Below are positions 29,180-45,627 of a stretch of DNA of 64,000 nucleotides, piece by piece. The notes under the pieces were generated by a model. It did not search any database and was not told the DNA's origin. It was given only the letters and a program-made list of their open reading frames with translations. Positions within the stretch are counted from its first letter, which is position 1, and each line of letters begins with the position of its first letter. The translations under genes were made by a program, and so were the position numbers. The DNA comes from a virus. The stretch is taken from IMG/VR virus record IMGVR_UViG_3300021170_000011, positions 35,995 through 99,994 of that record, one strand, 5' to 3'.

Positions 29180-29560
29180 CTAGTGGTGAGCCAAACTCAA
29201 CAGCTTCCGCAGAATGTTCGCCGGTGTCCCATTCTTTCCGGCCGGGGACTTCAGCCGGTCGATTTCGGCCATCAGGACACGAACATCTGTGACGCCCTTA
29301 ACCAGGTTTTCGGCGTCTACGCTCGCTAGGAACGATTCCGCGCAGCCGCCGTCGGATGCCCGTTCGGCCTCTGGCTGTTCGTCGCAGTAGAACCCGTCCT
29401 TAACGGTGACTACGGCGGCGGTGTAGACCCGGCAGGACAGGCAGCGGCAGCCCTTTTCGCCGTGGCTGTGGGCGTCCACGGTGAACCCGGCGGCGTGGTT
29501 CGATTCGCTGCGGCGCCGGATCTCACGTAACACGTCGTCCGGCAGCGGTTCGGCGGTCAC
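29180..29560 (-). CDS. Hypothetical protein with CRCLSC motif (126 aa)
   Basis: GTG 29560 (GTGA overlap with Thg1-like gene stop) is preferred over ATG 29572. Contains HSHGEKGCRCLSC and later two cysteines (FYCDEQ, GGCAESF), sufficient for a zinc site. C-terminal helical part is basic. No family recognised. Confidence 0.55.
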   Translation of the reverse strand: MTAEPLPDDVLREIRRRSESNHAAGFTVDAHSHGEKGCRCLSCRVYTAAVVTVKDGFYCDEQPEAERASDGGCAESFLASVDAENLVKGVTDVRVLMAEIDRLKSPAGKNGTPANILRKLLSLAHH

Positions 29561-30354
29561 GACTTGATCCAATACCGGGCAACGGGCTCGTCGAACACCG
29601 ACGTGGACGGCACTAGCTGGGCCAGCAGATTATCCGGGTCGGCTTTGAAGTCCCACGCCGCCTCGGTCTCCCAGTGGTGCCGGGGTTCCGGCCATGACAG
29701 GGTGCGGCTGCCGTCGCCGTTGTCGGTGACCGTCCCCTGCCGGGGTGTCCACTCAACATGCCGGACCTGTTGGCCACGCTGGACTTGCGGCGGGTAGTCG
29801 TCGAAGTTGGTTCCGGCGTCGGCCATCATCTGTTTCATTCCGGTGATGTTGACGCCGTGCAGTTGTTGGTGGCTGAACATGGAGCGGGCGGCCATGGACA
29901 CGGCGTTCCGTTTCGCGTCCTTCTGCCGCCACACAAAGTAGTTGACGGTTTCCACGGCGTCGGGCATGACGAACGCGCGGGCGTCGAACATGGGCCGGTC
30001 GCGGCGGTGCCAGGCGAGTTGGGTGGTGGCGACCGACGCGGCCACCGAGACAATCTTTTGGAGGCCGCCGCCGAACCACGGTTCGGTGTTCAGGCCGGGG
30101 TAGTCGCACACCAACAGGCTGATCTCGTCAGACTGGTGGTACGCGAACACGGCCCCGTCAATGTCCTGGCACATGGCCGTGGCGACGGCGGACATCTGCT
30201 CGACAAACTCCATGTCGAACGGCTTCTCGGCGGCGCGGAGGTACCGGTGGAATCCCCGGCCGTCCACGCGGATGATCAGCGGGAGGCGCCGGGGGAACCG
30301 GTGTTGCCACACCTGTTCGTACTGTTTCATCCGGTCGCCTAGCGAGTCCTGCAT
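29557..30354 (-). CDS. tRNA-His guanylyltransferase-like 3'-5' polymerase (Thg1 family), 265 aa
   Basis: ATG 30354 overlaps the upstream stop (TAATG). Signature residues are in place: LIIRVDGRGFHRYL (Asp31) and YHQSDEISLLV (Asp76-Glu77), giving the metal-binding triad of Thg1. Further Thg1-like stretches: MFDARAFVMPDAVETVNYFVWRQ and a RNAV-SMAARSMFSH segment. Thg1 proteins add G-1 to tRNA-His; Thg1-like proteins repair 5'-truncated tRNAs by templated 3'-5' addition. The repair activity fits the pnkP-ligase cluster of this phage. Confidence 0.92.
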   Translation of the reverse strand: MQDSLGDRMKQYEQVWQHRFPRRLPLIIRVDGRGFHRYLRAAEKPFDMEFVEQMSAVATAMCQDIDGAVFAYHQSDEISLLVCDYPGLNTEPWFGGGLQKIVSVAASVATTQLAWHRRDRPMFDARAFVMPDAVETVNYFVWRQKDAKRNAVSMAARSMFSHQQLHGVNITGMKQMMADAGTNFDDYPPQVQRGQQVRHVEWTPRQGTVTDNGDGSRTLSWPEPRHHWETEAAWDFKADPDNLLAQLVPSTSVFDEPVARYWIKS

Positions 30355-30980
30355 TACTCGACCGCCGACGTACGGTCTTCGTCGGTGAACGAGTAGGAGC
30401 CGCCCTTGGACCCACGGGTGACGAGCCCGGACAGGGTCGTGAACGCGGAGCGGGTGTTGCCGGTGTCGTAGGTCATGGACCCGTCGCGGCTGATGCCGTA
30501 GGACGCGGCGACGGTGATGGCGTCCTGGTTGGCGCCGAGGTAGATGAACGTCCACCCCTTTGCGGTGCGCTTCTCGATCTTCTCCTTGATCGTTTCGGCG
30601 TTGAACTCCTTCGACGAGTTCTCGTGGCCGTCGGTGACGATGACCACGATGACGTCCGGCCGCTGGTCCTTCGCCACCGGCTTCCACTTGGCCTTGACGG
30701 CGTTGATGGTGCGTCCGATGGCGTCGAGGAGCGCGGTGCCGCCGCGCGGCGTCAGCTCGTACAGCGGGACGTCGGCGATGTCCACGTTCTCGTACACCGG
30801 CTCGTACTCGGTGTCGAACTGGTACAGGGACGCAATGGTTCCGGTCGGGAACTCGTGGAACTGGTCGGCGAGGAAGCCCTGGAGGCCCTGTTCGGTGTCC
30901 CGGCGGCATGACGCCATGGACCCGGAACGGTCCATGATGATCACGATGTGGCGGTTGACGGTCATCATGCTGTCGGGCAT
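30354..30980 (-). CDS. von Willebrand factor A domain protein (208 aa)
   Basis: ATG 30980 with GGAGGAAAC. A compact VWA domain with MIDAS residues DRSGSM near residue 17, a TPRGGTALLDAI motif (Thr of MIDAS) and VTDGHENSS. No other domain. VWA proteins often act as adaptors for AAA ATPases or as metal-dependent binding modules; a partner is not obvious here. Directly upstream of, and coupled with, the Thg1-like gene. Confidence 0.88.
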   Translation of the reverse strand: MPDSMMTVNRHIVIIMDRSGSMASCRRDTEQGLQGFLADQFHEFPTGTIASLYQFDTEYEPVYENVDIADVPLYELTPRGGTALLDAIGRTINAVKAKWKPVAKDQRPDVIVVIVTDGHENSSKEFNAETIKEKIEKRTAKGWTFIYLGANQDAITVAASYGISRDGSMTYDTGNTRSAFTTLSGLVTRGSKGGSYSFTDEDRTSAVE

Positions 30981-31348
30981 GTTTCCTCCGGCTCTGGTTC
31001 ACACAGCGTGCAGTACCACCCCTTGCAGACGGGGCAGTCTCCTAGCGGGACGTCTGCCGGGTGTGGGCAGTGTCCCCATTCGTGGCAGCGGGGTCCGAAG
31101 TGGCAGTGTTGGCCGCCGGGGCACCAGGGGCCCCATTCGGCCTGCATTTGCTCACATGCTTCGGTCCGCACCGGACCACGTCGGTATCGTACTGCAATCA
31201 TGCCCATGAATGGAAATTGAATCTCCACCACATCGTTGCAGAATTCATCCCCGTGTTCAAAGAAGGAAATGCGGGGAATCCACGGCCGTGTTTGCTTCCA
31301 CGGCGGCCGATACCAAGCACGATTACCGAAAGTCACCTGTGACAACAC
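30965..31348 (-). CDS. Cysteine/histidine-rich zinc protein (127 aa)
   Basis: The N-terminal half is a basic/aromatic domain (RAWYRPPWKQTRPWIPRISF); the C-terminal half is packed with CPGGQHCHFGPRCHEWGHC and CPVCKGWYCTLC, enough for two or three zinc ions. Start ATG 31348 overlaps the upstream gene by 16 bases. No family recognised; the repeated Cys/His pattern suggests a zinc-finger cluster. Confidence 0.6.
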   Translation of the reverse strand: MLSQVTFGNRAWYRPPWKQTRPWIPRISFFEHGDEFCNDVVEIQFPFMGMIAVRYRRGPVRTEACEQMQAEWGPWCPGGQHCHFGPRCHEWGHCPHPADVPLGDCPVCKGWYCTLCEPEPEETCPTA

Positions 31349-31701
31349 CCGGGATGCTCCATCTTGTTGTTGCAGTCCTGCACATCACACCGCACAAAAT
31401 GATGCGACGCCGCCGCCCGCTCATACCTCTGACCACACGCCGGACACGGACCCACCTTCGCCCGACGAAACCGCACCCCCGCAGGGGCGGCAACCCACGC
31501 CGTGAACTCGTACACGTACCGGTCGCCCTCCTGCTGAACCCCCGCAGGGACGTACACCGGCCGGTACATGGCCATCCTGTCCGCCTGCGGGTCCCATTCG
31601 CTGTGCCCCGTCGGCGGCTGCACATCCGGGACAGTCCGCGTCTGCCCGTCGAACGGACCCCCGGTCAGGCACAGGGCAAAGGGTTTACGGAGCGGCGGCA
31701 T
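31333..31701 (-). CDS. Hypothetical protein with C-terminal zinc ribbon (122 aa)
   Basis: First 70 residues look like a small beta domain common in phages (FALCLTGGPFDGQTRTVPDV ... RYVYEFTAW); the C-terminus has CPACGQRY and CDVQDCNNKMEHPGCC, a four-or-more-Cys zinc site. ATG 31701 overlaps the upstream stop. Function unknown. Confidence 0.6.
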   Translation of the reverse strand: MPPLRKPFALCLTGGPFDGQTRTVPDVQPPTGHSEWDPQADRMAMYRPVYVPAGVQQEGDRYVYEFTAWVAAPAGVRFRRAKVGPCPACGQRYERAAASHHFVRCDVQDCNNKMEHPGCCHR

Positions 31702-32432
31702 CAGAACCCTCCCAAATACCGGATCTTGTCCCGGACTGCGTCGGCGTCCTTTTCGATCGGGTCATACACCGCCGACGACAGCCCAGCCATCAACGCGTCA
31801 AACGCCCGCAGCGCGTCCGTAGCGGGCGGCGGCGGCACCAGGTCATCACAGACCATCCGGTCGTGTCCGTACGTCGTAGCGACGTTGTGGGCCATGCGGA
31901 CGAACGCCGTTTCGAAGGTGGGGCCGCCGGTGTCCAACGCGTAGTCGTGGAACGTGACCTCCCCCACCGGATGGTCACCGTGCCGGGTGCCCGGCCACGG
32001 GTATTTGCCGCCCTCGATCCACACCTCGTCCATCGTGTTCAGGTGTTCGTCATCTTCGATACGGAGCGTTAGGGGGCTGACGCGGACGGCGTACAGACTG
32101 AAGCAGCGGCCCACGCCGCCGCTATCCTCCAAATACCGTTCGTGCAACCGCTGATCCCCGGCGAACGGCGCAAACATCCAGAACGCCGGGTGGGAGTCGA
32201 GGTACTGCCAGGCGTTGACGTAGTTGTGGGGGTCGGCCTCGTACCGGGCCACGATCTTCTCCCACTGGGCAATACGGTCCGTCTGCGCGGTAGACCACAG
32301 GAACACGTCGTCAGCGTCGATCACGGACGGCTGGCTGCCCTTGATGTCCCAGATGACATCCCGCATGTCCCCGTCGCAGGGGACGTCGGGGAGTTGCATC
32401 GGCCGGTACCTGATCAGTCGTGCCGGATCCAT
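31701..32432 (-). CDS. Hypothetical protein, paralog of 32644-33108 (243 aa)
   Basis: Central segment RIAQWEKIVARYEADPHNYV followed by NAWQYLDSHPAFW matches the pattern of the protein at 32644-33108 (AEWEQIVRDFEDNP ... TAWLYLGHHPLFW), so the two genes are paralogs. The second half (VRVSPLTLRIEDDEHL ... GPTFETAFVRMAHNVA) also aligns. No catalytic motif seen. Confidence 0.6.
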   Translation of the reverse strand: MDPARLIRYRPMQLPDVPCDGDMRDVIWDIKGSQPSVIDADDVFLWSTAQTDRIAQWEKIVARYEADPHNYVNAWQYLDSHPAFWMFAPFAGDQRLHERYLEDSGGVGRCFSLYAVRVSPLTLRIEDDEHLNTMDEVWIEGGKYPWPGTRHGDHPVGEVTFHDYALDTGGPTFETAFVRMAHNVATTYGHDRMVCDDLVPPPPATDALRAFDALMAGLSSAVYDPIEKDADAVRDKIRYLGGF

Positions 32433-32647
32433 CGCACACCCTCCACAACGAAATCGTCAGGATTCTTGTCGTACTTGCACGCCATGTAGTCGATAGCCCA
32501 CGTCCGGACCTTCGACTTTTGTGGGGCCATCGTCACCCCGTGCCCGAGGATCTCAACCTCGTACGCGCGATGAACCCAATACGGCACCCCGAACACGCGG
32601 TGGACGCACCAATACGGCCACGCCCAAACCCTGATCCCGGTAGTCAC
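32414..32647 (-). CDS. Hypothetical Trp/Tyr-rich protein (77 aa)
   Basis: GTG 32647 overlaps the upstream stop (GTGA). Opens with aromatic-rich VWAWPYWCVHRVFGVPYWVH, possibly a membrane-interfacial segment, and ends DFVVEGVRWIRHD. It separates the two paralogs 31701-32432 and 32644-33108. Function unknown. Confidence 0.5.
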   Translation of the reverse strand: MTTGIRVWAWPYWCVHRVFGVPYWVHRAYEVEILGHGVTMAPQKSKVRTWAIDYMACKYDKNPDDFVVEGVRWIRHD

Positions 32648-33108
32648 CCGTACCACCGCTCATTGTCGCCGGTGATGTACTGCCGGTCGTTGCCGTACCG
32701 CTCGTGAACAATCCCGGCGCAGGCCACCACCGTCGAGGCGTGGTCTTTCCCTTCAAGGCTGAACCCAATGTCGTAGTTGTCGGGGTCGGTGGCCCACAAC
32801 AGCGGGATCACATCCAACACGACAGTGGTGGCGTCGCCGTCACGCTCCAGGTTCAACTCCAAACATTCGGGCCGGTTCCATGCGGAGCTGAAGTCCAACA
32901 CGGGCACGACGGTGCCGCCGGACTTGGTGACCTGCGTCCCCCAGAACAGCGGGTGGTGGCCGAGGTACAGCCACGCCGTATACAGGTCAGCCGGGTTGTC
33001 CTCGAAGTCACGGACGATCTGTTCCCATTCGGCCTTGGCCGCGTCAAACTGCGGGAACGCGTCGAGCGCGGGCCACCCAATCGGAATCTTGTTCACGTTT
33101 TCCACCAT
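32644..33108 (-). CDS. Hypothetical protein, paralog of 31701-32432 (154 aa)
   Basis: Starts ATG 33108 (MVENVNKIPIGWPALDAFPQ), 16 bases inside the upstream gene end. Shares the W-E-x-I-V ... Y-x-AW-x-YL-x-HPxFW pattern with its larger paralog, and a C-terminal segment with an HERYGNDRQYI-like helix. Probably a duplicated domain pair. Confidence 0.6.
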   Translation of the reverse strand: MVENVNKIPIGWPALDAFPQFDAAKAEWEQIVRDFEDNPADLYTAWLYLGHHPLFWGTQVTKSGGTVVPVLDFSSAWNRPECLELNLERDGDATTVVLDVIPLLWATDPDNYDIGFSLEGKDHASTVVACAGIVHERYGNDRQYITGDNERWYG

Positions 33109-33635
33109 CCACGTTCGAAATGCAGGGTCAGGACAGCGGCGACGGTCCCGGCGCCGGTGGCAGGCAACGCAACCCACCATGGCAGCCCAAACGACGTCGC
33201 CGACGTCCAAATGATGAGGTTCCAGCCAGACAGCGCGACCATCCGCCACGCCTGCCACCGCCGCCGCGCCTTCGCAGTAATCGCGACGACCGACACCGGC
33301 TCCTCAGCCTCCGCCGTCAACAGGTTGCCAATAGCCATGTCCATGGACGACGTGTCCATGTCGTCGCTGACACCGACGCGGGGCATGCTGAAGTTCAGGA
33401 CCAGCGCGCCAGCCTGCCCGGCCCATATATCAGCGTGCGGCATGTCGGTGTCCCGGAACACCAGGGCGCCGTCAGCGCCGTACAGCTCGCCGGTGGTCGT
33501 TCCGGCCGGGACGTTGTGGGTGGCGACACACGCCACCACGAACCGCAGGACACCGTGTTGCAGCTCGACACGCTCCACCGGCCAGCGGTGCCCGGCGAAG
33601 TTCCACCAGCCGACGGCGGATGTCTTGTCACGCAC
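33093..33635 (-). CDS. Hypothetical protein with two C-terminal TM helices (180 aa)
   Basis: GTG 33635 with GAAGGGAAG upstream. The first 120 residues form a soluble beta-rich domain (VLRFVVACVATHNVPAG ... VLNFSMPRVGV). Two hydrophobic helices follow near residues 128-145 and 150-168, ending in a basic/aromatic tail (HFERGWWKT). Tail-anchored topology. Lies directly downstream of the LuxR-type regulators. Confidence 0.6.
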   Translation of the reverse strand: MRDKTSAVGWWNFAGHRWPVERVELQHGVLRFVVACVATHNVPAGTTTGELYGADGALVFRDTDMPHADIWAGQAGALVLNFSMPRVGVSDDMDTSSMDMAIGNLLTAEAEEPVSVVAITAKARRRWQAWRMVALSGWNLIIWTSATSFGLPWWVALPATGAGTVAAVLTLHFERGWWKT

Positions 33636-34074
33636 GGCGTCTTCCCTTCAATTGGAGAACGAGCGTGCCGTTCCGGAATGCCTCGCCGACCAGGTGTGTA
33701 CGGTTGACGGTTTTAGTTTTCTCCAGCATGCGACGCACGTGGGTCTTGACGGTGTCCTCGGCCACGCCGAGACGGACAGCGATTTCCTCGTTTTCCAGAC
33801 CGGTCGCTATCAACAGGAGAACCTGCATTTGCCGCCGGGTCAGCGGGAACGGCGACGGCGCCAAATCCGGTTTGAACACGCCACGCTTATACATCAGCGT
33901 CACCGCGTATGTGATTCCCAGGTTCTTTGAACCGAGTTTCTTGGTGAGGCGGGCGCGGTGGGTACGGACGGTCGCGAATGCCAGCCCCGTGTTCTCGGCG
34001 GTTTCCCCGATGCCCATTCCGAGGGCCGCGTATTCGATGATCTGGATTTCGCGGGCAGTCAGTTCCGGATTCAT
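33628..34074 (-). CDS. Regulator with two tandem LuxR-type HTH units (148 aa)
   Basis: Unit 1 (residues about 3-67): ELTAREIQIIEYAALGMGIG, then GLAFATVRTHRARLTKKLG. Unit 2 (about 78-142): PLTRRQMQVLLLIATGLENE, then GVAEDTVKTHVRRMLEKTK and NRTHLVGEAFRNGTLVL. Each is a complete GerE-type tetrahelical HTH; no sensor, receiver or ATPase domain is present. The start overlaps the stop of the four-unit regulator (34074), so the pair is co-translated. Confidence 0.88.
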   Translation of the reverse strand: MNPELTAREIQIIEYAALGMGIGETAENTGLAFATVRTHRARLTKKLGSKNLGITYAVTLMYKRGVFKPDLAPSPFPLTRRQMQVLLLIATGLENEEIAVRLGVAEDTVKTHVRRMLEKTKTVNRTHLVGEAFRNGTLVLQLKGRRRA

Positions 34075-34982
34075 TATGGCTTCCTACGGAGAACGAGGTT
34101 GCCGGTCTGGAACGACTGGTTAACCAGGTGGGCCCGGTTCTTAGCCCGCAGCGTCCGGCACGTCACCGCCACGCACGTCTTCACCGACGACTCGGTCTCG
34201 CCGACACGGGCGGCGGTAGACGCGACCGTGTGGCCCCTGGCGATGTGTTCGATGATGTGGATGGTGCGGCGGTCCAGCAGCGGCGTGGGCGGCCCTACGC
34301 GGTTGACGGTGAGGTACCCGTATTTGTAGGCGGCGGCGACGGCGTGGGCGGTGGTGCGGGTGTCGAACTTGGCGTTGATGTCGGAGATGACGCGCATGAC
34401 CTTGCCGTGGGACATGTTCATCTCGGCGCCGATTTGGTCCCGGGCCTTCCCCGACGCCACAGCCCGGATAACCGCGTACTCGATGTTCGTCAACTGGTTC
34501 ATGTGCGGCTGCGGTTGGGGGGCTAGGGGCGTACCGTCGGGGGTGTACGGCATCAGCCGGGACATGTACGCCAGGTAGGTGAGGTGGGTGCGGTTGCGGG
34601 CCGCCCACAGCTTCAGCAGCGACCCGATTTTGCATTTGACGCTGTGTAGGCTGCGGCCGAGGTCTTCGGCGATTTCCTCGTTTCGCATGCCCTTTGACAC
34701 CTTCTCCAGCACGTCCATGCCGTAGGCGTCCATGACGGGGACCACGCACGGGTCCTCGGATAGGGGTTGCAGGATCCCCATCTCGAAGGCTTTCACCACC
34801 AACGCCGCGTCGTTGTCGTTGGGGACGTCTAGCGCGCGGCCCAGCCGGGTCCGGTGTGTTTTGACGGTGTTTATGGAGATGAACAGTTTGTTTGCAATCT
34901 CCTGTTTCGTCATTCCCTCGCCGGTCATGCACATGATCTGCAAGAGCCGCAGCGACATTGGTGGTGAGGCCTTCTTGGACAC
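34074..34982 (-). CDS. Regulator with four tandem LuxR-type HTH units (302 aa)
   Basis: GTG 34982 with AAGGACT. Four GerE-like units follow each other: residues about 9-71 (MTKQEIANKLFISINTVKTH), 82-145 (MRNEEIAEDLGRSLHSVKCK), 160-225 (ARDQIGAEMNMSHGKVMRVI) and 235-298 (VASTAARVGETESSVKT). The last ends NRAHLVNQSFQTGNLVL, close to the end of the neighbouring two-unit protein. No sensory domain. A bead-like array of DNA-binding units could bridge several operator half-sites. Confidence 0.88.
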   Translation of the reverse strand: MSKKASPPMSLRLLQIMCMTGEGMTKQEIANKLFISINTVKTHRTRLGRALDVPNDNDAALVVKAFEMGILQPLSEDPCVVPVMDAYGMDVLEKVSKGMRNEEIAEDLGRSLHSVKCKIGSLLKLWAARNRTHLTYLAYMSRLMPYTPDGTPLAPQPQPHMNQLTNIEYAVIRAVASGKARDQIGAEMNMSHGKVMRVISDINAKFDTRTTAHAVAAAYKYGYLTVNRVGPPTPLLDRRTIHIIEHIARGHTVASTAARVGETESSVKTCVAVTCRTLRAKNRAHLVNQSFQTGNLVLRRKP

Positions 34983-34986
34983 GTGC

Positions 34987-35412
34987 CTAGTCCTTGGTCA
35001 GGGTCTTTATGTTGTTGGCGACGAACGCGACCTCACCGGCGATGTCGATGGGGCTGTTGCTCACGTTCAACAAATCGTCGTAGTGGTTGTCCATGGCGTT
35101 CATGGCGCGTCGGGCCTTCTCCAGCACGGCGCGGCCCGCGTCGGTGATGGTGAGGGGGTTGACGCGGCCCATGCCGCGCTCGTGGCCGTTCGCGATGTAC
35201 CCGGACGCGATCAGGTTGGCGATGCCGGTCCACCCGGTCTGGGGGGTGATGCCGCACGCCTTCGCGGCGCCGGTGCCGTGGATGTTGGGGTACCGGTCGA
35301 TGGCGTCCAACAGCGTGTACTGGCAGAACGTCAGGCCGAGGGGGGCCAGCGTCTCGCCGACGCGGCGGTTGGCGTCCAGCGCCAACGTGCGCAACGCAAC
35401 CGTGATGTTCAT
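34987..35412 (-). CDS. MarR-family winged-helix regulator (141 aa)
   Basis: ATG 35412 with GGAGGAAAA. Residues 25-95 fit the MarR fold: LTFCQYTLLDAIDRYP (helix 2), GTGAAKACGITPQTGWTGIANLIASGYI (HTH), then a wing with ERGMGRVNPLTITDAGRAVL. Flanking helices would form the dimer interface. One of two adjacent MarR paralogs, followed by the LuxR-array genes. Confidence 0.85.
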   Translation of the reverse strand: MNITVALRTLALDANRRVGETLAPLGLTFCQYTLLDAIDRYPNIHGTGAAKACGITPQTGWTGIANLIASGYIANGHERGMGRVNPLTITDAGRAVLEKARRAMNAMDNHYDDLLNVSNSPIDIAGEVAFVANNIKTLTKD

Positions 35413-35436
35413 GTTTTCCTCCGGTGGTGGTGCTGG

Positions 35437-35856
35437 TCAGGCGTGGATGTCGTACCAGTCGAGGAGTTTGGTGTGGGCGTCGGCGAGCCCGGTGATGGTG
35501 TCGGGGTTGATGAACCGGCGCAAGTGCTGTTCGGCGGCAGCCATGGCGCGGGTGCATTTGTCGAGGACTGTCAAGCCCTGTTGGGTGATCAGCAGGGGTT
35601 TGGCGACGCCCCGGCCCTCCTCGCGGATGATGTAGCCGCGTCCGCGCAGGGTGGCGACGGCGTGCATGACGCTGGCCTCGGCGGACCACATGTGACGGGC
35701 GACGCTGCTGGCGTGTATCGGGCCGTAGTCGCCGATGACGGACAGGGCCGTGTACTGCATGGCGTTGAGTCCGTATTCGCCGACGGTGGCGGCGCACACG
35801 GCTTCGGCTTCGCGGGCCACGTTGCGCAGGTTGTGGTACAGGGTGAGTTGGGTCAC
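35437..35856 (-). CDS. MarR-family winged-helix regulator, paralog (139 aa)
   Basis: GTG 35856 with GGAGGGAAACCC. Layout: LNAMQYTALSVIGDYGPIHA, SVARHMWSAEASVMHAVATL (HTH) and a wing EEGRGVAKPLLITQQGLTVL. Shares size and organisation with 34987-35412. First gene of a regulatory operon; an extended -10 element lies about 35 bp upstream. Confidence 0.85.
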   Translation of the reverse strand: MTQLTLYHNLRNVAREAEAVCAATVGEYGLNAMQYTALSVIGDYGPIHASSVARHMWSAEASVMHAVATLRGRGYIIREEGRGVAKPLLITQQGLTVLDKCTRAMAAAEQHLRRFINPDTITGLADAHTKLLDWYDIHA

Positions 35857-35888
35857 GGGTTTCCCTCCGGTCGTGATGTCGTTCCGAT

Positions 35889-35897
35889 ACGATACCA
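35889..35897 (-). promoter_or_regulatory. Possible extended -10 promoter of the regulator operon
   Basis: Minus strand TGGTATCGTATCGG: TGn plus TATCGT, identical in its first eleven bases to the element before the RNA-repair operon at 11389. A clear -35 is not visible. Confidence 0.4.
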
Positions 35898-35924
35898 CGA
35901 TCACGCATGAATACGTAATAGGGG

Positions 35925-36257
35925 TTAGTCCGCGTCCGCGCAACGCTCGTACCACACCCGGCCACACTGGGCGCATTCCCGCTCCAGGAACTCGGTATCG
36001 CCCTCCTTCATGTATTTGATATTGACCTGGCATGATTCGCATTTGGAGCAGAACGTTTTCGCGCCGCTGTACTTCGGCAGATACGAACGCACCCGGAACG
36101 CCGCATCCAACGCGTTCCGGATGTTCCTCCCCAACTGCTCCTCGCCATTGCGGGCATGATGCGCGGCAATCTGCAACGCCACATGCCGGAAATGCTCAGG
36201 ATCGCCCTTCGCCCACGCGGTCACCAGAATCATCGCCTGACCGCCGTCCGAGATCAC
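35925..36257 (-). CDS. Small protein with C-terminal zinc ribbon (110 aa)
   Basis: GTG 36257 has AAGGAG at 7-nt spacing and overlaps the upstream gene by 62 bases in another frame. Helical N-terminus (HFRHVALQIAAHHARNGEEQ) and a C-terminal zinc ribbon (FCSKCESC ... CAQCGRVW). Nucleic-acid or protein binding likely; function unknown. Confidence 0.65.
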   Translation of the reverse strand: MISDGGQAMILVTAWAKGDPEHFRHVALQIAAHHARNGEEQLGRNIRNALDAAFRVRSYLPKYSGAKTFCSKCESCQVNIKYMKEGDTEFLERECAQCGRVWYERCADAD

Positions 36258-36567
36258 TCACCGTCTCCTTCGGCTCGTAACACCGTTCATCCCATTCCCA
36301 ATCGCACACGCCGCACCGGCGGTGCATCCGTTCCTGCCCGTACACGAACCGGCCGCCGGGCGACCCCCAGTGGTTGCAGCACGCGTTGGCAGCCATGTAC
36401 GTCGTGTTGGCGCGGGTGCCGTTGCATTTGACGCAGCGGGGCCGGTCGGCGCTGAACGGCGGCAGTATCACACCGTCCAGGGGCGTGACGCGGGTCAGGA
36501 CAACAGGTTTAGGATCTTCCCTCACGGCCGGTTCGTCGGCCGGGCCGGGTCCCTTCCTGCGGAACAT
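36196..36567 (-). CDS. Small zinc-ribbon protein (123 aa)
   Basis: ATG 36567 follows GGAGGATTCGA. Contains CVKCNGTRAN, CCNHWG and CGVCDWEW, a zinc ribbon similar in arrangement to that of the neighbouring gene at 35925. Both ends overlap neighbours by about 60 bases in other frames. Function unknown. Confidence 0.6.
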   Translation of the reverse strand: MFRRKGPGPADEPAVREDPKPVVLTRVTPLDGVILPPFSADRPRCVKCNGTRANTTYMAANACCNHWGSPGGRFVYGQERMHRRCGVCDWEWDERCYEPKETVSDLGRRSGDDSGDRVGEGRS

Positions 36568-36937
36568 TCGAATCCTCCGGGATGTCGAACAACGCCACAT
36601 TGTCCTCGGCGACAGCGGCGGCGCGGGTCCGCGCGGCCTGCGCGCGGTGTTCGTCCTTGTCGTAGTTGAGGTGGCAGCGCTGACACATGGCCTTCAGGTT
36701 GTCTTCAGCACAGTCCTCGGGGGTGTGGTTCAGGTGCGCCACCGTCAACACCACCACAGACCCGGTGAACGGGTGTGGGTGGCCGTGGACGGCGTCGCAG
36801 CGCCCCCGGGTGTGTGGGTTCGCCCCGCATTCCCCACGGCATTCACAGCGGCTGTCCGCCCGCTGAAAGCGGATACGGGCGGACAGCAACTCCCAATCAG
36901 TGGGGTATCGGCGGCGGTTCTCCGGTCGGATCGGCAC
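36509..36937 (-). CDS. HNH endonuclease (142 aa)
   Basis: N-terminal CRCEC/CGANPHTRGRCDA zinc knuckle, then LTVAHLNHTPEDCAEDNLKAMCQRCHLNYD: His-Leu-Asn-His (catalytic His), Asn of EDNL and final C-x2-CH, the complete HNH (treble-clef) pattern. Typical of free-standing phage HNH nucleases. Start at 36937 (MPIRPENRRRYP) immediately after the upstream gene. Confidence 0.88.
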   Translation of the reverse strand: MPIRPENRRRYPTDWELLSARIRFQRADSRCECRGECGANPHTRGRCDAVHGHPHPFTGSVVVLTVAHLNHTPEDCAEDNLKAMCQRCHLNYDKDEHRAQAARTRAAAVAEDNVALFDIPEDSNVPQEGTRPGRRTGREGRS

Positions 36938-37300
36938 CTACTGATTCTCGACCAGCGCCGCCACGACGTCTAGGAGCTTGTCCACCCGCTCCCGTTCCGC
37001 CGCGTATTCGTCGTGCCGGTCGGCGGCCGGTCCTGAAAGGTTGAACGGTTCCAGTTTGGCGCCGTCGCGTTTCATCACCCACCCCAGTAACGTCTGAATC
37101 AGCGGGTGGATCGTGTTGTCCGGCAGCGTAAACGACACGTCGCCACCGCCGGGGGACGACACCGGCACCCACCCCCACGTGTGCCCGTTGGTGTCCATCC
37201 GCAGCATCGTCTTCGACCCCCACTCGGGATGGGTGTCGAACACGGACACGTGGACCGAACCACCCGCCTTGTGCGGCTTGATCTCGATTTGGATCGTCAT
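36938..37300 (-). CDS. Hypothetical protein (120 aa)
   Basis: ATG 37300 overlaps the upstream stop (ATGA). First half beta-rich with HVSVFDTHPEWGSKTMLRMD, second half helical and charged (DEYAAERERVDKLLDVVAAL). No motif recognised. Confidence 0.55.
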   Translation of the reverse strand: MTIQIEIKPHKAGGSVHVSVFDTHPEWGSKTMLRMDTNGHTWGWVPVSSPGGGDVSFTLPDNTIHPLIQTLLGWVMKRDGAKLEPFNLSGPAADRHDEYAAERERVDKLLDVVAALVENQ

Positions 37301-37557
37301 TCGCGGGCCTTGGCCAACCGCCGGTCCAACTCGGCGTCCGCCGCCGTGTCCTCCGAACGGTTCGCGTAGCGCCCGGCGTTGGAGATCGCGGTCATCGCGG
37401 CAGCCAGCTGCGAAACGATCTCCCGGACCGCTTCGTCCTGCTGCCCGATCGATTCGTTGACGCCGTGGGCGTGGTTGAACGCGGCCATGGTCGCCGTATG
37501 CGCGGCGTCGATGAGCGGCAGCATCTTCCCGGCCGGGCTGTACGTGCGGTCAGTCAT
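37297..37557 (-). CDS. Hypothetical helical protein (86 aa)
   Basis: ATG 37557 overlaps the upstream stop by 8 bases. Almost entirely helical (IDAAHTATMAAFNHAHGVNE, VREIVSQLAAAMTAISNA) with no TM segment; likely oligomeric. Function unknown. Confidence 0.55.
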   Translation of the reverse strand: MTDRTYSPAGKMLPLIDAAHTATMAAFNHAHGVNESIGQQDEAVREIVSQLAAAMTAISNAGRYANRSEDTAADAELDRRLAKARE

Positions 37558-38218
37558 GTGAATACTCCTCGATCTCAAACTCGCCGCCGGTGGTGTCGCG
37601 GGTCCAGGTGATCCGGGCGTGGTCACCGAACTGCGCCAGGAGGACGTTCTCGAACTCGCCGCCCTCGATCGCCTGCGACAGTTCCCGGGCGATGGTCCAC
37701 TTCTCGTACCGGTCGCCCTTGTACACGGCGTCGTCACGCCAGCCGTCCATGCCGCCCAACGACGGGTGTTTCCCGTAGTGGTTGACCTCGTACTTGTAGT
37801 CGTCCTCGCCGTCGTCGTCATCGTCGGTGGACACGGCCCGTTCCGCTGCCTCGTCGATGCGGTCGGTGATGTGGATCTGTTGCCAGTCGTTGTCGGAGAA
37901 CACCCCGGCGTCTAGGAGGGCGCGGACGTGGTCCGTCAGCTTCTCCCGGACCTCGTCGATCGTCTGCGTCTTGTTCGCGGCCACGTCGTCGCGGGTTTTC
38001 ACCCAGAACGTGTGAACCCCGAACTCGCACACGTCGCCGTCGTTGAAGTACGGGGTGTACTGCGTCCAGCCGAACGCGACGAAGTACGGGTCGTCCAACA
38101 CCCGCTGCATAATCGGCGCCAGATCCTCCACGGTCTTCTGCGGGGTGTGGCGGCGGGCGTCGTTGGGTTCGCCGGTGACCGGCACCCCTAGGAAGCTGAG
38201 GCGTGTCTGTTCGGTCAT
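37550..38218 (-). CDS. Hypothetical acidic protein (222 aa)
   Basis: ATG 38218 with GGAGGAACA. Contains a DDDDDGEDDYKYEVNHYGKH acidic stretch near residue 140. N-terminal part begins TRLSFLGVPVTGEPNDARRH; C-terminus ends GGEFEIEEYSHD. No recognised domain. Confidence 0.6.
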   Translation of the reverse strand: MTEQTRLSFLGVPVTGEPNDARRHTPQKTVEDLAPIMQRVLDDPYFVAFGWTQYTPYFNDGDVCEFGVHTFWVKTRDDVAANKTQTIDEVREKLTDHVRALLDAGVFSDNDWQQIHITDRIDEAAERAVSTDDDDDGEDDYKYEVNHYGKHPSLGGMDGWRDDAVYKGDRYEKWTIARELSQAIEGGEFENVLLAQFGDHARITWTRDTTGGEFEIEEYSHD

Positions 38219-38595
38219 TGTTCCTCCGGAACCGTGAGAAGGAGTTGCGCTAGCGGGACCACGCGGCGGCGGGCACCGGACATCCACGCATCAATGGGCA
38301 TGCCCTTGACGTAGTCGGCCGGGGATGGTAGCCACCCGAGGTCTTCGATGATGTGGCGTTCCGCAATTTCCCGGACCGGGATCCGGCGGATGCCGTTTTC
38401 TAGTTGGATGTCAAGGGTTGGGCCGAAGATCCTCTGGCACAGGAAAACGCCCAACGTGTGGTGGTACACCGACCGGTGCCGGACGTCACCGATGACCTGT
38501 TTGGACGAGTCGATGAATTCCTCGATCGGCAGATAGTCCTCCGGTCGGCCGCCCCATTTGCGGGCGGCTGACCGGGCGTGGAACCAGCTATTCAC
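38215..38595 (-). CDS. DUF6915-like protein (126 aa)
   Basis: The start WFHARSAARKWGGRPEDYLP, followed by IEEFIDSSK ... VRHRSVYHHTLGVFLCQRIF and VREIAERHIIEDLGWLPSPADYV, matches the conserved pattern of DUF6915-type proteins found in phages and plasmids (remembered pattern, not searched). His-rich core might bind metal. Biochemical role unknown. Confidence 0.75.
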   Translation of the reverse strand: MNSWFHARSAARKWGGRPEDYLPIEEFIDSSKQVIGDVRHRSVYHHTLGVFLCQRIFGPTLDIQLENGIRRIPVREIAERHIIEDLGWLPSPADYVKGMPIDAWMSGARRRVVPLAQLLLTVPEEQ

Positions 38596-38839
38596 CGTCG
38601 CCGCCCTTCACGATGTTGTGCACGGTGTTGCACGGGTGTACCGGGCACATGAGCAGCGAGGTTCCGTGGCCGTGGTAGGTCATGTGCATGTCGTTGATGG
38701 CGTCGATCAGCGCGGCCATGTTGTGTTGGTGGTCGGCGCGCATGTTCTCCATCACCAGGTACACGGTTCTGCTGGCCCCGGATGCGGCGATGTCGATGGC
38801 CTCGGTGACGATTTCCCGGTATTCGGTGTACGTCTTCAT
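38588..38839 (-). CDS. Hypothetical protein (83 aa)
   Basis: ATG 38839 (ATGA overlap with upstream). Helical first 60 residues (EYREIVTEAIDIAASGASRT), then HMTYHGHGTSLLMCPVHPCN, a His/Cys cluster that may bind metal. Function unknown. Confidence 0.55.
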   Translation of the reverse strand: MKTYTEYREIVTEAIDIAASGASRTVYLVMENMRADHQHNMAALIDAINDMHMTYHGHGTSLLMCPVHPCNTVHNIVKGGDGE

Positions 38840-39246
38840 CCGTCGTCCCTGCCGCAGGTGTCCAGGTATGCACCGGCCACCCGCAACGCCATGATCCACG
38901 CGAGGCCGTTGCCGCCGTTGTCCGGGGACGGTAGCGGCCCCTGCCGGATCGCGTCTAGAAGGTTCGCCACCGTCAGCGCCACACCCGGATGCCATGTGGT
39001 GATGTGCCGGGCGTCGCCGGGTTCCGGCCAATACTCCTCGTACTGCGGGCACTGGTGCCGTTTCGGGGCCTTCAGGATCTGCATCGTCGGCCAGTGCGGA
39101 TCCGGTGCCGAATGCAGCCGCCAACACTGGTCGCTGTCGTCGCTGATCCACGGGCCCGGTGATGCGGCCTGCGCGTGCTGGCGCATCAGGGCAGCCGCCC
39201 GGCGGAGGGTTTCCGCCGGGTCGGCAGGCAACGGCCGGTCGGTCAC
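38836..39246 (-). CDS. Hypothetical protein (136 aa)
   Basis: GTG 39246 overlaps the VWA gene stop (GTGA). N-terminal helix LRRAAALMRQHAQAASPGPW, then a DSDQCWRLH and HITTWHPGVALTVANLLDAI segment. This opening (helix plus ATPGPW-like) is frequent in small actinobacterial and phage proteins of unknown function. Confidence 0.6.
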   Translation of the reverse strand: MTDRPLPADPAETLRRAAALMRQHAQAASPGPWISDDSDQCWRLHSAPDPHWPTMQILKAPKRHQCPQYEEYWPEPGDARHITTWHPGVALTVANLLDAIRQGPLPSPDNGGNGLAWIMALRVAGAYLDTCGRDDG

Positions 39247-40598
39247 TGGTAGTCCGTGGAACGCGGCGGCTTGTTGAAGATCAGCAGGTGGGACCCGACG
39301 ACCAACTGACGGTTCGGGGCCTTCGACTGCACGTACACCAGGTGCTTGTCAGACGCCGTCGGCTTCACCCGGACCTCGCGGTCATCGGCGAGCCCCAGCA
39401 TCTTCCGGACAGCCGGGCCGAAGTACACGCGGCGGGTGTCCTTGTCCATGATGACAATGTGCTTGTCAGCCTGGATCCGTTCGGTCTTGCCCTCGACGAG
39501 CTGATAAAACGCCTGCCCGGCCTGGTAGTGGCTGTTGTTGACGTTCTGTACGAAGTCGTCGATGCGTCCGCCGTGGGCCTTCCACGGGGTGCGCGGGTGC
39601 TTCGTGTCCCAGTCGTCCGGCTTCACCAGACCGCGCAGCGGCGGGATCGGAACCAACGTGTAGTCGTCGTACGGCACCGGCTTCAGCTTCGCGGCGGCGA
39701 TCGACTGGGCGTTGACAACCGAGGAGTCGATGACGAACAGGTTCTTGGATCCGCGCACGCCGGACGCCCGCCCGGACATGATCACGTCGGTGGCGACCTT
39801 GATCTTCTCGACCGCCTCCTCCAGCCCGCGCTTGCTGCTGGCGTCCCACACGGCGATGTTGTCGGCGGGGAACCCGAACTGCTTCGCCTCGAACTTGCCC
39901 TGCATGTTCGGGACCAGCGCGGCCACGGTCCAGTGGTCGGCGAGCTGGCTGATCTGCTCCTTCAGTTCCGGGGCTTTCCAGTTGTTGACGTTGTTGCCGC
40001 CGTCGGTCAGGACGAACACCACGAACGCGTGGTCCCCGTACTTCTCCGGGGTCATGGCGAGGTCGTTCAGCGCCAGGGCCGTCGCGTCGATCAGGGCGGT
40101 GGTGCCGCCGATCTTGTACAGGTTCAGCAGCGACGGCAGACGCAACACGTCCTTGTCGTAGATGACGCACTCAACCTCGTCGTCGAAGATGTAGACGGTG
40201 ACGCGGGTTTCCTGGTCGAGTTCCCGGGACCGCTGCGCCAGGTGCGCAATCTGGGCGTCGGCGACCTTGATGACCTGGTCGGCGAGGTGGCCCATGGATC
40301 CGGACGCGTCGAGGACGAGCGCGACGTGTGTGATGTAGTTCTGCTTGTGCTTCGACACCTTCGCCGGGGGCGTGGGGTGCAGGGTGCTGCGGTACGGCAC
40401 AGGGGGTTCCTTCCGGGGTTGTGACGGCGTCGTGGGGGTCGGGGTGGGGACTGATGCCCACGTGTGCCGCTGGGGCCGTGGTGGGGCTGTGGGGATGGTC
40501 ACGGCGATGCCCATGGCTCCGGCGTGGGCCCGCAACAATGCGATGTCGTTGGGGGTCCAGCCGAGGGCTTCCCATGCTGACCAGTCGGGTTGGGTCAT
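39243..40598 (-). CDS. von Willebrand factor A domain protein with Pro-rich N-terminus (451 aa)
   Basis: Residues 1-85 are low-complexity Pro/Thr-rich. The VWA domain spans about 88-265 with MIDAS motif LVLDASGSMGHL, IGGTTALIDATAL and FVLTDGGNNVNN. The C-terminal 170 residues hold a beta-rich domain of unknown type. Second VWA protein in the window (other: 30354). First gene of its transcript; a possible promoter element lies at 40637. Start codon lies after TCCGGAGGACGGACAACC. Confidence 0.85.
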   Translation of the reverse strand: MTQPDWSAWEALGWTPNDIALLRAHAGAMGIAVTIPTAPPRPQRHTWASVPTPTPTTPSQPRKEPPVPYRSTLHPTPPAKVSKHKQNYITHVALVLDASGSMGHLADQVIKVADAQIAHLAQRSRELDQETRVTVYIFDDEVECVIYDKDVLRLPSLLNLYKIGGTTALIDATALALNDLAMTPEKYGDHAFVVFVLTDGGNNVNNWKAPELKEQISQLADHWTVAALVPNMQGKFEAKQFGFPADNIAVWDASSKRGLEEAVEKIKVATDVIMSGRASGVRGSKNLFVIDSSVVNAQSIAAAKLKPVPYDDYTLVPIPPLRGLVKPDDWDTKHPRTPWKAHGGRIDDFVQNVNNSHYQAGQAFYQLVEGKTERIQADKHIVIMDKDTRRVYFGPAVRKMLGLADDREVRVKPTASDKHLVYVQSKAPNRQLVVGSHLLIFNKPPRSTDYQ

Positions 40599-40636
40599 GG
40601 TTGTCCGTCCTCCGGACGACGGGGTGTTGTGTCTTT

Positions 40637-40645
40637 ACGATACCG
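40637..40645 (-). promoter_or_regulatory. Possible -10 promoter element
   Basis: Minus strand GGTATCGTAAAG, 40 bp before the VWA gene start; resembles the elements at 11389 and 35889 but without the TGn extension. Confidence 0.35.
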
Positions 40646-40679
40646 CACCCCGCCGACAGGAAACACTATTCAAAAATGA

Positions 40680-41579
40680 TCACACTGGTTTTCTTTGCGG
40701 CGGTGATGTAAACCGCAACTGCCAGCCACGCGACGTCGGCGACCAGGACAAGTACTTGTCCCCAGCCTGAACAACAACATCCGTGTCATCCGGCCGCAAA
40801 CCATCAAGGACACCCTTCAGGCGCACTTCCTTCGCCTTCAAATCCTTGATCTGTTTCCGTGTCGCAAACAGGTCAGCCGCCGTATCCCCGGCGTCCGCGC
40901 CCTCCGCCAACAACACAGACCGCCGGTCACGGTCAGGGACGCCGCCAGACCAGCACAGCCCGCCGTCGGGGCCGCCGAACGGGCAGCCCTGACACCACGC
41001 GCTGTCGGGTTCGTAGTCACGCGGGACCAGGTCGAACGGCACTGACCGGACGTCGTCCAGCCACTCCAGCGCGTCCTTGATGTCGCGCATGCTGAAGTAC
41101 TGCTCGTACTGCCATTCCTCGCCGGTGTCCCGGCACAGGTAGTCGATCCGGAACGTCTCCACCGGTACCGGCGGGTCCTGCGTCAGCAGGGCCGCGCAGT
41201 AGCCGGAGCATTGCCACAGGTGCGCGAACGGCGGACCGTGCAGCTTAATCGACTCCAGCCACCGGGACGTGGTGGTTTTGGTGTCCACGACCCGGCGGTG
41301 TTCCGGTTCGTACCGGTCGAAGTGGCCTTTGATCCCGGCGTACTCGACTTCCCATTCGGCGGGCATGCCCAGTGCGTCAAGGACGATCTTCAACTGTTCG
41401 TGGACGGCGGTCCCGATCATGGCGGTAACCGACGACATGCGGTTGACAGGCTCGTACCCGTCGATCTTGTAGCGGGTGCGGCGGCGGCAGCCGCCGATGT
41501 CGGACCAGCCAATCTCACGCTGCGCGGAGCGTGCGCGGAGCTGGTCCGCCAGCAGCAGCAGGGCGGATGTAGAGGTCAC
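40680..41579 (-). CDS. Cas4/RecB-like PD-(D/E)XK nuclease (299 aa)
   Basis: GTG 41579 overlaps the upstream stop (GTGA). Nuclease core: AMIGTAVHEQLKIVLDALG (motif I His), GHFDRYEPEHRRVVDTKTTT (D ... DxK), WQCSGYCAALL (Q-Y motif) and a C-terminal cysteine set CQGCPFGGPDGGLC that, with an N-terminal Cys, could hold an Fe-S cluster as in Cas4/AddB-like enzymes. With RecT two genes upstream it likely supplies 5'-end resection for phage recombination. Confidence 0.85.
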   Translation of the reverse strand: MTSTSALLLLADQLRARSAQREIGWSDIGGCRRRTRYKIDGYEPVNRMSSVTAMIGTAVHEQLKIVLDALGMPAEWEVEYAGIKGHFDRYEPEHRRVVDTKTTTSRWLESIKLHGPPFAHLWQCSGYCAALLTQDPPVPVETFRIDYLCRDTGEEWQYEQYFSMRDIKDALEWLDDVRSVPFDLVPRDYEPDSAWCQGCPFGGPDGGLCWSGGVPDRDRRSVLLAEGADAGDTAADLFATRKQIKDLKAKEVRLKGVLDGLRPDDTDVVVQAGDKYLSWSPTSRGWQLRFTSPPQRKPV

Positions 41580-42019
41580 GCAGCCACCTGATTCCGCAGC
41601 TCTTTGACTCGTTTCTGGTACGCACGTTGATACGCGTTGTAACACGTGCGGCAACGCCGTTCACCGTTCAACAGGTGACCTTCTTTGCACGTTGTGCGGT
41701 CACCGAACTTACGGCGGATATTCTCTGCGTGGGTCACGGCCTCTAGGTGGTCAGGGTTGACACAATTGCGAACCCGGCAGAGATGATCAATTTCCAACCC
41801 GTCAGGAATTAACCCTTTGGATCGCTCGTAAGACCACCGGTGCGCGTATACCGACCGGTAGCTACCATCCGTCATGCGCTGGTTAAACCTGCCGTACCCA
41901 AGGTCTTGGATCTCACCATTCCACGCATGGCATGGTGTTGAGAACCCGTTATCTTCCGGCAGCCACTTGGCGTCAAACCGTTGATCGTTTAGCGCGGCCC
42001 GTTTAGGACGCTCAATCAC
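41576..42019 (-). CDS. HNH homing-type endonuclease (147 aa)
   Basis: HNH core GLEIDHLCRVRNCVNPDHLE with flanking ENIRR and a C-terminal zinc knuckle (CKEGHLLNGERRCRTC). Lower GC than neighbours and a TTA codon at 41810-41812, suggesting recent acquisition. It interrupts the recombination gene cluster between the MazG-like and nuclease genes, typical behaviour of free-standing homing endonucleases. Start GTG 42019 overlaps the upstream end by 8 bases. Confidence 0.9.
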   Translation of the reverse strand: MIERPKRAALNDQRFDAKWLPEDNGFSTPCHAWNGEIQDLGYGRFNQRMTDGSYRSVYAHRWSYERSKGLIPDGLEIDHLCRVRNCVNPDHLEAVTHAENIRRKFGDRTTCKEGHLLNGERRCRTCYNAYQRAYQKRVKELRNQVAA

Positions 42020-42344
42020 AAGCGTTCACCAGCTTCACGGCACGGTCGTGCCGGGTTTCGGCGTATTTCTGAAGCGCGGCCTCAGCGCTGTCACCGGCCA
42101 CCGACTGCAAAGCCACCATGGCGGCGAGGATCACGTCACACAACTCGTCGCGGACGTCGTTCCACGTGTGCGTCACGCCCTTACGCGGGTTCTGGCCGGT
42201 CACGCCGATGATAGCGGCCGTGACCTCACCCAGTTCCTCGGCGACCTTGAAACAGCGGAGAACGCGGTAGTCCCCGGGATGCGGGGCGGATGACCGGTCT
42301 AGCCACGCGGTCAGGTAGCGGATGTGTGCCCAGATGTCATCCAT
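42012..42344 (-). CDS. MazG-like nucleotide pyrophosphohydrolase (110 aa)
   Basis: EELGEVTAAIIG and RDELCDVILAAMVAL give the EExxE ... ExxD magnesium site of the all-alpha NTP pyrophosphohydrolase (MazG/dUTPase) superfamily. Would hydrolyse (d)NTPs to monophosphates, cleaning the pool or lowering alarmones. ATG 42344 overlaps the RecT stop (TGATG). Confidence 0.85.
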   Translation of the reverse strand: MDDIWAHIRYLTAWLDRSSAPHPGDYRVLRCFKVAEELGEVTAAIIGVTGQNPRKGVTHTWNDVRDELCDVILAAMVALQSVAGDSAEAALQKYAETRHDRAVKLVNACD

Positions 42345-43369
42345 CACTCGGGCTCCACAATCCATACCGGCTCGTGGTCGTAGTCGGCGCCGGTGTGTTC
42401 GAACGGCAGCATGCGGGTTCCGCAGATCTCGCACGTCTTCTCGCCGTCGTGTTCCCGCACCGCCGTGCCGGGTTCCGTGACCTTCTCGCGCGGCGACACC
42501 CGGTTGTGGATCTTCCGCAGCGCGGCCTTCGCCGATTCCGGATCGCCCTCCCGAACCTCCTCGAACGCGTCCGCGATGGTGGGGCTGTTCCCGGTCATGC
42601 GACCGGCCAGCGCCAGCAACTCGCCCGCCAACTGTTCCTGTTCCTGTGCGGTGCCCTGCACGGTGTTGGCGGCGACGAACCGGGACCGTTCCTCGCCGAA
42701 CCCGTCCTCGGCGGCGTCGTCGTATTCCTCGCCCTCGATACCCATGGTGCCGTAAATAACCTCTGGGCAGGCGTAGCGGGAGCAGTGGGAGATGGCGCGG
42801 TACCGCAGCATCGTGGCCGTGTACTGTTCCCACGGCAGTTTCTCCCCGGACCGGGAGTTGCGGGCCATCACGGCGCCGTCGTCGTTGACCTGTGCCAGCC
42901 CGGCATTGCGGGCGTCCCAGACGGAGAACGTCAGCTCGTGAACGGTTTTGTCGTCGCCCCGGACGATCGTGGCCTTCGCCGACAGCGGGCGCTTCGACGT
43001 CGGGTGGTATTCCATGTCCACGGTCAGGCGGTGTCCGGCCTGACGGACGCGGGTGGCCCACACCTGCCCGGACAGCATCGGGCGGCCCTTGACCACGTAG
43101 ATGCCGTTGATGGCCTGCATCGGGGACATGCCCAATTCGGTGCCCATGCACAGGATCAGGACGACGTCCGCGACTTTGATCTGTCCGGATTGGCGGTCAC
43201 GCAGGGAATCGGGGAGGAGACCGGCCATCGCGAGGGAACGTCCGTACAGGACGGCTTCCTCTAGGGTCTCAAGGGGTTTGCCCAACGGGACGCGGGCGAG
43301 TTCGGCCATGGCCGGGGCGGCGTTGCGGGCCAGTTCGGCGGCAGGCTGACGCAGAGCAAGATCGTTCAA
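42344..43369 (-). CDS. recT: RecT-family single-strand annealing protein (341 aa)
   Basis: TTG 43369 with AGAGGA; the long conserved core includes LYGRSLAMAGLLPDSLRDR, VLILCMGTELGMSPMQAINGIYVVKGRPMLSGQ and KLPWEQYTATMLRYRAISHCSRYACPEVI, the hallmark of RecT-like annealases. The C-terminus adds an unusual zinc-ribbon-like part (CEICGTRMLPFEHTG). Partner of the nuclease at 40680. Confidence 0.9.
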   Translation of the reverse strand: MNDLALRQPAAELARNAAPAMAELARVPLGKPLETLEEAVLYGRSLAMAGLLPDSLRDRQSGQIKVADVVLILCMGTELGMSPMQAINGIYVVKGRPMLSGQVWATRVRQAGHRLTVDMEYHPTSKRPLSAKATIVRGDDKTVHELTFSVWDARNAGLAQVNDDGAVMARNSRSGEKLPWEQYTATMLRYRAISHCSRYACPEVIYGTMGIEGEEYDDAAEDGFGEERSRFVAANTVQGTAQEQEQLAGELLALAGRMTGNSPTIADAFEEVREGDPESAKAALRKIHNRVSPREKVTEPGTAVREHDGEKTCEICGTRMLPFEHTGADYDHEPVWIVEPE

Positions 43370-43413
43370 TTGTGGGTTCCTCTGAAGCTGGGAGTGCTGT
43401 TTGATTGCCTCCC

Positions 43414-43442
43414 ATCTTAGAAGAACCCACCGACAGTTTCAG
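43414..43442 (-). promoter_or_regulatory. Possible promoter for recT
   Basis: Minus strand -35 CTGAAA, 17-bp spacer, -10 TAAGAT, about 45 bp before the start. The -35 end overlaps the last codon of the upstream gene. It lacks the conserved spacer core seen in the TACGAT promoter family. Confidence 0.5.
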
Positions 43443-43648
43443 TGCTTCCGGCCGCCCCGCCTCGTGATCTTGTCGTGGTAGTAGGCGACGGCGGCGCCGT
43501 TGACCACGGACATGGGGGCGAAGAAGTACAGCCACGGCCACGCCTTGGCGTACACGACCGTCACGGACATGGTGACGGCGGTGAACACTGCCAGGATCAT
43601 CAGCACGCGCATCATGTAGTCGTTCACGTGCTGCCGTTCAGTCGTCAC
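43439..43648 (-). CDS. Small membrane protein (69 aa)
   Basis: GTG 43648 (GTGA overlap). Two hydrophobic segments (residues about 13-33 and 38-55) and a basic tail (DKITRRGGRKH). One of four very small membrane or basic proteins encoded in 43439-44171. Confidence 0.6.
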   Translation of the reverse strand: MTTERQHVNDYMMRVLMILAVFTAVTMSVTVVYAKAWPWLYFFAPMSVVNGAAVAYYHDKITRRGGRKH

Positions 43649-43791: not shown

Positions 43792-43820
43792 GATTCCTCC
43801 GGGTGTCGTGGACGGTTGAA

Positions 43821-43849: not shown

Positions 43850-43860
43850 CGTCTGTGGTG

Positions 43861-45623: not shown

Positions 45624-45627
45624 TGGT

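What the first reader, a model, noticed from the sequence alone, without database searches (positions are those of the whole stretch)
33628..34982. Six LuxR-type HTH units in two adjacent proteins (4 + 2), without sensor domains
The 302-residue protein contains four GerE-like tetrahelical units and the next, overlapping gene contains two. LuxR-type regulators normally have one HTH plus a sensing domain. Shared ends (NRAHLVNQSFQTGNLVL and NRTHLVGEAFRNGTLVL) show duplication. Such HTH arrays could read several spaced operators, possibly the recurring promoter cores of this genome, or act as decoys for host LuxR regulators.
Basis: partly seen in the sequence, partly recalled or inferred. Interest (0 to 1): 0.75.

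Follow-up and report, generated by a model that had tools for sequence, protein, structure and literature searches.

The report
Phage proteins with six linked HTH domains
An uncultured phage, probably of an actinobacterium, carries two neighbouring regulator genes built only of linked LuxR/GerE-type DNA-binding domains (four in one protein, two in the next); pairs and gene clusters of such domains turn out to exist elsewhere, so this is an unusually long version of a known kind of regulator, with unknown targets.

Summary
P0001 (34074-34982, minus, 302 aa) has four GerE (PF00196) matches and P0002 (33628-34074, minus, 148 aa) has two. Scored alone, the units give 45, 27, 23, 15, 37 and 64 bits (cut-off 23.5): four are clear, unit 3 is borderline, unit 4 weak. 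AlphaFold models show helical HTH units; helix 4 is clear in u1, u3, u5 and u6. No sensor or receiver domain is present. The genes follow two paralogous MarR-like genes in one apparent operon; a recurring promoter core (GGTATCGTA, 6 in window, 0.17 expected) lies 40 nt before its first gene. Sensor-less single GerE proteins are common in phages. Two-unit proteins occur in Streptomyces phage Chymera, one IMG/VR phage and Streptomyces prophages; another phage has seven GerE matches, six clustered; one actinobacterial ORF has four in tandem. So: new variant of a known kind. Best explanation: multivalent DNA-binding regulators. DNA binding, targets and any decoy role are untested.

The parts
34074..34982 (-). 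P0001, 302 aa, four GerE/LuxR-type HTH units (u1 aa ~9-71, u2 ~84-145, u3 ~164-224, u4 ~236-298), start GTG, AAGGA upstream
33628..34074 (-). P0002, 148 aa, two GerE units (u5 aa ~4-67, u6 ~77-139); start overlaps the stop of P0001 (TAATG)
34987..35412 (-). MarR-like winged HTH protein, 141 aa, directly upstream of P0001 (4 nt gap); closest solved relative by sequence is Rv2887, a mycobacterial MarR-type protein
35437..35856 (-). MarR-like winged HTH protein, 139 aa, paralogue of the next gene (35% identity, E 5e-16); first gene of the apparent operon
35888..35896 (-). GGTATCGTA promoter-like core 40 nt before the first gene of the operon; one of six in the window
35872..35905 (-). Possible operator: CGTGAT / ATCACG inverted repeat (22 nt between arms) around the promoter core; within chance (p about 0.24)
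33093..33635 (-). 180-aa protein of no known family with a hydrophobic, probably membrane-spanning stretch near its C end; overlaps the end of P0002, probably same operon

Best explanation
P0001 and P0002 are phage-encoded, ligand-independent transcription regulators made of linked GerE/NarL-type DNA-binding domains. Tetrahelical HTH domains normally bind DNA as dimers through helix 4 on paired half-sites; here several domains are joined in one chain, so one molecule carries two or four DNA-reading heads with different recognition helices and can bind paired or extended operators in phage and/or host promoters without a signal. Activity would be set by the amount made from the MarR-MarR-GerE4-GerE2 operon. 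Shown: gene content, six units, absence of sensor domains, operon layout, positive charge of every unit. Inferred: DNA binding, pseudo-dimer arrangement, targets, direction of regulation. Origin: most likely joining and divergence of single phage GerE genes, such as those that sit side by side in other phages; the order of events is not resolved.
For: GerE is the best family by far for both proteins (92 and 97 bits against 32 and 44 for sigma-70 region 4). Models and Foldseek give LiaR/VraR/NarL/GerE DNA-binding domains. All six units keep net positive charge (+2 to +5; other phage single units average +3), and five of six keep K or R at the position aligned with the TVK lysine of NarL; u6 and u1 keep TVKTH. 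Same architecture elsewhere: Chymera gp47, annotated 'transcriptional regulator', two units; L006, two units; Streptomyces prophage-like loci, two of them next to replication initiation genes. Side-by-side single GerE genes in G600, G601 and G602 supply the raw material for fusion. Tetrahelical HTH domains bind as dimers to inverted or direct repeats (PMC4797271).
Against: No DNA-binding or expression data. u3 and u4 have degenerate recognition helices (KVMRV, SVKTC) and weak scores, so some units may not bind DNA. No operator family could be tied to these proteins. No close relative is known, so selection on the units cannot be tested.
Confidence: 0.6

Rival explanations
1. Decoy or dominant-negative: the units pair through helix 4 with host NarL/LuxR-type regulators and keep them off DNA, so the phage silences host response regulators.
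For: No sensor domain, several units per chain, degenerate recognition helices in u3 and u4. Tetrahelical HTH proteins are reported to form heterodimers (PMC4797271 discussion); actinobacteria hold dozens of LuxR-type proteins (candidate counts).
Against: u1 and u6 keep canonical recognition helices and all units are positively charged, which a pure protein decoy does not need. The closest annotated analogue lies in a phage regulator/WhiB gene neighbourhood. No direct evidence.
Confidence: 0.13
2. Phage-specific transcription factor of sigma-region-4 type, in line with the PHROG 3282 name 'sigma factor': the units recruit RNA polymerase to phage promoters.
For: PHROG 3282 is the best phage family for both (E 2.9e-20 and 1e-17); a scan of 32000-38000 finds no standard sigma-70 promoter.
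Against: GerE scores are far higher than sigma region 4; no sigma region 2; four helices per unit as in NarL/GerE.
Confidence: 0.1
3. The six units arose by tandem duplication inside this phage and are largely redundant, decaying copies without individual functions.
For: u4 and u6 share NR[AT]HLV; long branches of u2-u4; two MarR-like paralogues in the same operon show that tandem duplication happens here.
Against: Unit-unit scores are mostly lower than scores to GerE units from elsewhere; the tree does not group them; frames intact with a strong coding signal.
Confidence: 0.15

Closest known systems
Streptomyces phage Chymera gp47 (AMS01606.1), 'transcriptional regulator', 210 aa
   Same: Actinophage protein with two GerE units in tandem, no receiver or sensor domain recognised; top hit of the P0002 model among viral structures
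   Different: One protein with two units plus an N-terminal extension; about 32% identity over part of P0002 with weak E-value; next to a WhiB gene, while the window's record has no WhiB match
Streptomyces prophage-like tandem GerE proteins (L083, L086, L088; also L084, L085)
   Same: Two units about 72 aa apart; L083 is the best full-length relative of P0002 found (39% over 141 aa)
   Different: A consistent first-unit/second-unit type, all 8 external pairs in leave-one-out; the window's six units do not follow it
Phage record G600 (IMGVR_UViG_3300038549_000020)
   Same: Seven GerE matches, six of them within 2.8 kb
   Different: Spread over several short neighbouring frames, some partial, instead of fused 4 + 2
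Actinobacterial ORF in G262 (L130)
   Same: Four GerE units in tandem, spacing about 75 aa
   Different: Inside a giant open frame of about 5,000 codons with MFS and alpha/beta-hydrolase matches; not a short phage protein
GerE (B. subtilis) and NarL/LiaR/VraR DNA-binding domains
   Same: Same tetrahelical fold, unit by unit; GerE is also a sensor-less protein
   Different: One unit per chain, dimers by helix 4

Membership tests
GerE/LuxR-type HTH (PF00196) | Match over the curated cut-off | tested here: met
   Both proteins as wholes (92.4 and 96.8 bits, cut-off 23.5); units 1, 2, 5, 6 singly; unit 3 just below and unit 4 below
GerE/LuxR-type HTH (PF00196) | Four-helix HTH fold | tested here: met
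   Clear in u1, u3, u5, u6; u2 and u4 have helices 3 and 4 fused at low confidence
GerE/LuxR-type HTH (PF00196) | DNA binding, dimerisation by helix 4 | not testable with these tools
   Needs binding and structural experiments
NarL/FixJ response regulators or quorum-sensing LuxR receptors | Receiver or autoinducer-binding domain | tested here: not met
   No such Pfam domain in P0001 or P0002
Streptomyces phage/prophage tandem-GerE pair family | Two GerE units about 72 aa apart in one short protein | tested here: met
   P0002; P0001 has spacings of about 76, 80 and 72 aa
Streptomyces phage/prophage tandem-GerE pair family | Distinct first-unit and second-unit sequence types | tested here: not met
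   Window units do not follow the odd/even profiles, external pairs do 8 of 8
Sigma factor (PHROG 3282 name; sigma-70 region 4) | Sigma regions 2 and 4 | tested here: not met
   Only weaker region-4 HTH similarity, no region 2

The most novel reading that the evidence does not exclude
The 4 + 2 array is a modular multi-headed DNA reader: units with different recognition helices, joined in two chains that act together, recognise several spaced operators (or host and phage operators at once) and set a genome-wide programme without any signal input.
Probability: 0.12. Interest if true: 0.75.

Novelty: new variant of a known kind. Interest (0 to 1): 0.42.

Why it matters
LuxR/GerE domains are among the commonest bacterial DNA-binding domains and usually work one per chain under a sensor. 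A phage that links four and two of them, and other phages that keep pairs or clusters, suggest that phages build signal-independent, multivalent regulators from this domain. If operators are found, it would show how linking replaces dimerisation and sensing, and give a natural array of HTH units for study.

Tried and rejected
Pair-duplication idea (three copies of an odd/even pair): tested with profiles from eight external pairs; external pairs fit 8 of 8, window units do not; dropped. In-phage duplication of all six: not supported by pairwise scores or tree, but 62 columns resolve little. Operators: recurrent k-mers in intergenic DNA gave mainly ribosome-binding-site-like, GC-rich and tRNA-like words, plus GGTATCGTA; inverted repeats around the cores were not beyond chance, although several had 22-nt gaps between arms. 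Close relatives: none in INPHARED for P0001 at E 1e-5; a near-DNA search of 30000-50000 gave only an HNH gene; IMG/VR scans gave one two-unit relative; plasmids gave only single-unit matches. Lifestyle: no tyrosine or serine integrase match in the record, which may be incomplete. Literature: no paper found on tandem GerE proteins.

Full report
Observation. P0001 (34074-34982, minus, 302 aa) and P0002 (33628-34074, minus, 148 aa) are real open frames with coding-type base composition (third-position GC 0.87 and 0.74). P0001 starts 4 nt after a MarR-like gene and its stop overlaps the start of P0002 (TAATG), so the genes look translationally coupled. Pfam finds GerE four times in P0001 (E 1.3e-26) and twice in P0002 (E 5.6e-28). 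Taken alone the units score 45.0, 27.1, 23.0, 14.8, 36.9 and 64.0 bits against a cut-off of 23.5, so unit 4 rests on context and model rather than on its own score. There is no receiver, PAS or autoinducer domain. The record (G000, 99,994 bases, IMG/VR) has no other GerE match.

Structure. AF2 with small alignments gives P0002 as two clean four-helix units (mean pLDDT 86) with a short strand after each. P0001 (mean pLDDT 75) shows four units; in u2 and u4 helices 3 and 4 are drawn as one long helix with low confidence near the end. Foldseek aligns single units to LiaR, VraR, DegU, NarL and GerE DNA-binding domains. The relative placement of the units in P0001 is not informative (pTM 0.35).

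Surroundings. Upstream on the same strand lie two MarR-like proteins that are paralogues of each other (35% identity, E 5e-16); downstream overlaps a 180-aa protein of no known family. A 9-base core, GGTATCGTA, occurs six times in the window against 0.17 expected (no shuffle of 100 reached six); in four cases it lies 40-56 nt before a called gene on the same strand, including the first gene of this operon. It has the form of a -10 element (TATCGT; from general knowledge). Tape measure and VWA proteins have relatives in actinophages (Arthrobacter, Mycobacterium, Streptomyces), which supports an actinobacterial host.

Relatives. No phage in INPHARED matches P0001 at E 1e-5. In IMG/VR about two dozen other GerE-bearing records were sampled; nearly all hold a single sensor-less GerE protein. 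Exceptions: L006, two units in one protein; G600, seven GerE matches, six within 2.8 kb in neighbouring short frames; G601 and G602, two neighbouring single-unit genes. Streptomyces phage Chymera gp47 has two units (counted by profile). In 200 Streptomycetaceae genomes, two-unit ORFs were seen at nine places in eight genomes, a lower bound because only the best 18 candidates per genome were scored; three of these are near-identical duplicates of another type, and L083 and L088 lie beside phage replication-initiation genes. Across 396 genomes of the phylum three further ORFs turned up, one of them with four units (L130). G139 has a two-unit gene close to a second multi-GerE gene. So two-unit proteins and gene clusters exist elsewhere, but no other sampled virus has four units in one protein. 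The samples were drawn by sequence patterns, so they are not a census.

Origin of the units. I tested whether the window is three copies of an odd/even pair. Profiles from eight external pairs classify those pairs correctly in leave-one-out (16 of 16 units), but the window units do not alternate (differences +5.2, -8.2, +0.1, +8.8, +6.3, +10.4). Except for u4 (closest to u6), each unit scores higher to GerE domains of other phages or bacteria than to its neighbours, and an ML tree does not group the six (4 changes, shuffled mean 5.5). Sixty-two columns cannot settle this, and diverged units tend to score higher against consensus-like sequences, so the fair statement is: divergent units, origin unresolved, joining of separate phage GerE genes plausible, recent duplication not supported.

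Function. This fits DNA binding with differing specificity, strongest for u1, u5 and u6 and doubtful for u3 and u4. Tetrahelical HTH proteins bind as dimers on inverted or direct repeats and can form heterodimers (PMC4797271), so linked units acting as built-in dimers is the most economical mechanism; decoy action on host regulators and a sigma-like role are rivals without direct evidence.

Verdict. Observation confirmed; duplication claim mostly unsupported; novelty lies in the length of the array in a virus, not in the principle.

Noticed in passing
11388-11396, 31183-31191, 35888-35896, 40636-40644, 46761-46769, 61526-61534: GGTATCGTA promoter-like core, six copies against 0.17 expected; four lie 40-56 nt before a called gene on the same strand. 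None exact in the left 36 kb of the record.
   Followed up: partly
12427-13272 (+): 281-aa lysine-rich protein made of repeats of the type MTAAQRAARKAKMSAAIKRANAN, histone-H1-like in make-up; sits among structural genes; no PHROG match.
   Followed up: no
5184-9268 (-): Block that looks like RNA repair: macro-domain-like protein, kinase/phosphatase-like protein and nucleotidyltransferase-like protein (by eye) and an RNA ligase (PHROG 562).
   Followed up: no
29557-30354 (-): Protein resembling tRNA-His guanylyltransferase (Thg1-like), by eye only.
   Followed up: no
30354-30980 and 39243-40598 (-): Two related VWA-like proteins (PHROG 7371 and 26613); the second resembles proteins of mycobacteriophages Myrna/Phabba and large Streptomyces phages.
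   Followed up: partly
L130 7377-19499 (G262): Actinobacterial open frame of about 5,000 codons with MFS-like, four tandem GerE and alpha/beta-hydrolase (Abhydrolase_8) matches in one frame.
   Followed up: partly
L122 700-5716 (phage G600): Cluster of GerE genes downstream of a replication-initiation-like gene (by eye); two of them have an extra N-terminal HTH and look like paralogues.
   Followed up: partly
L087 9599-11957 (G139): Streptomycetaceae locus with a two-unit GerE gene close to a 537-aa gene holding at least two more GerE units.
   Followed up: no
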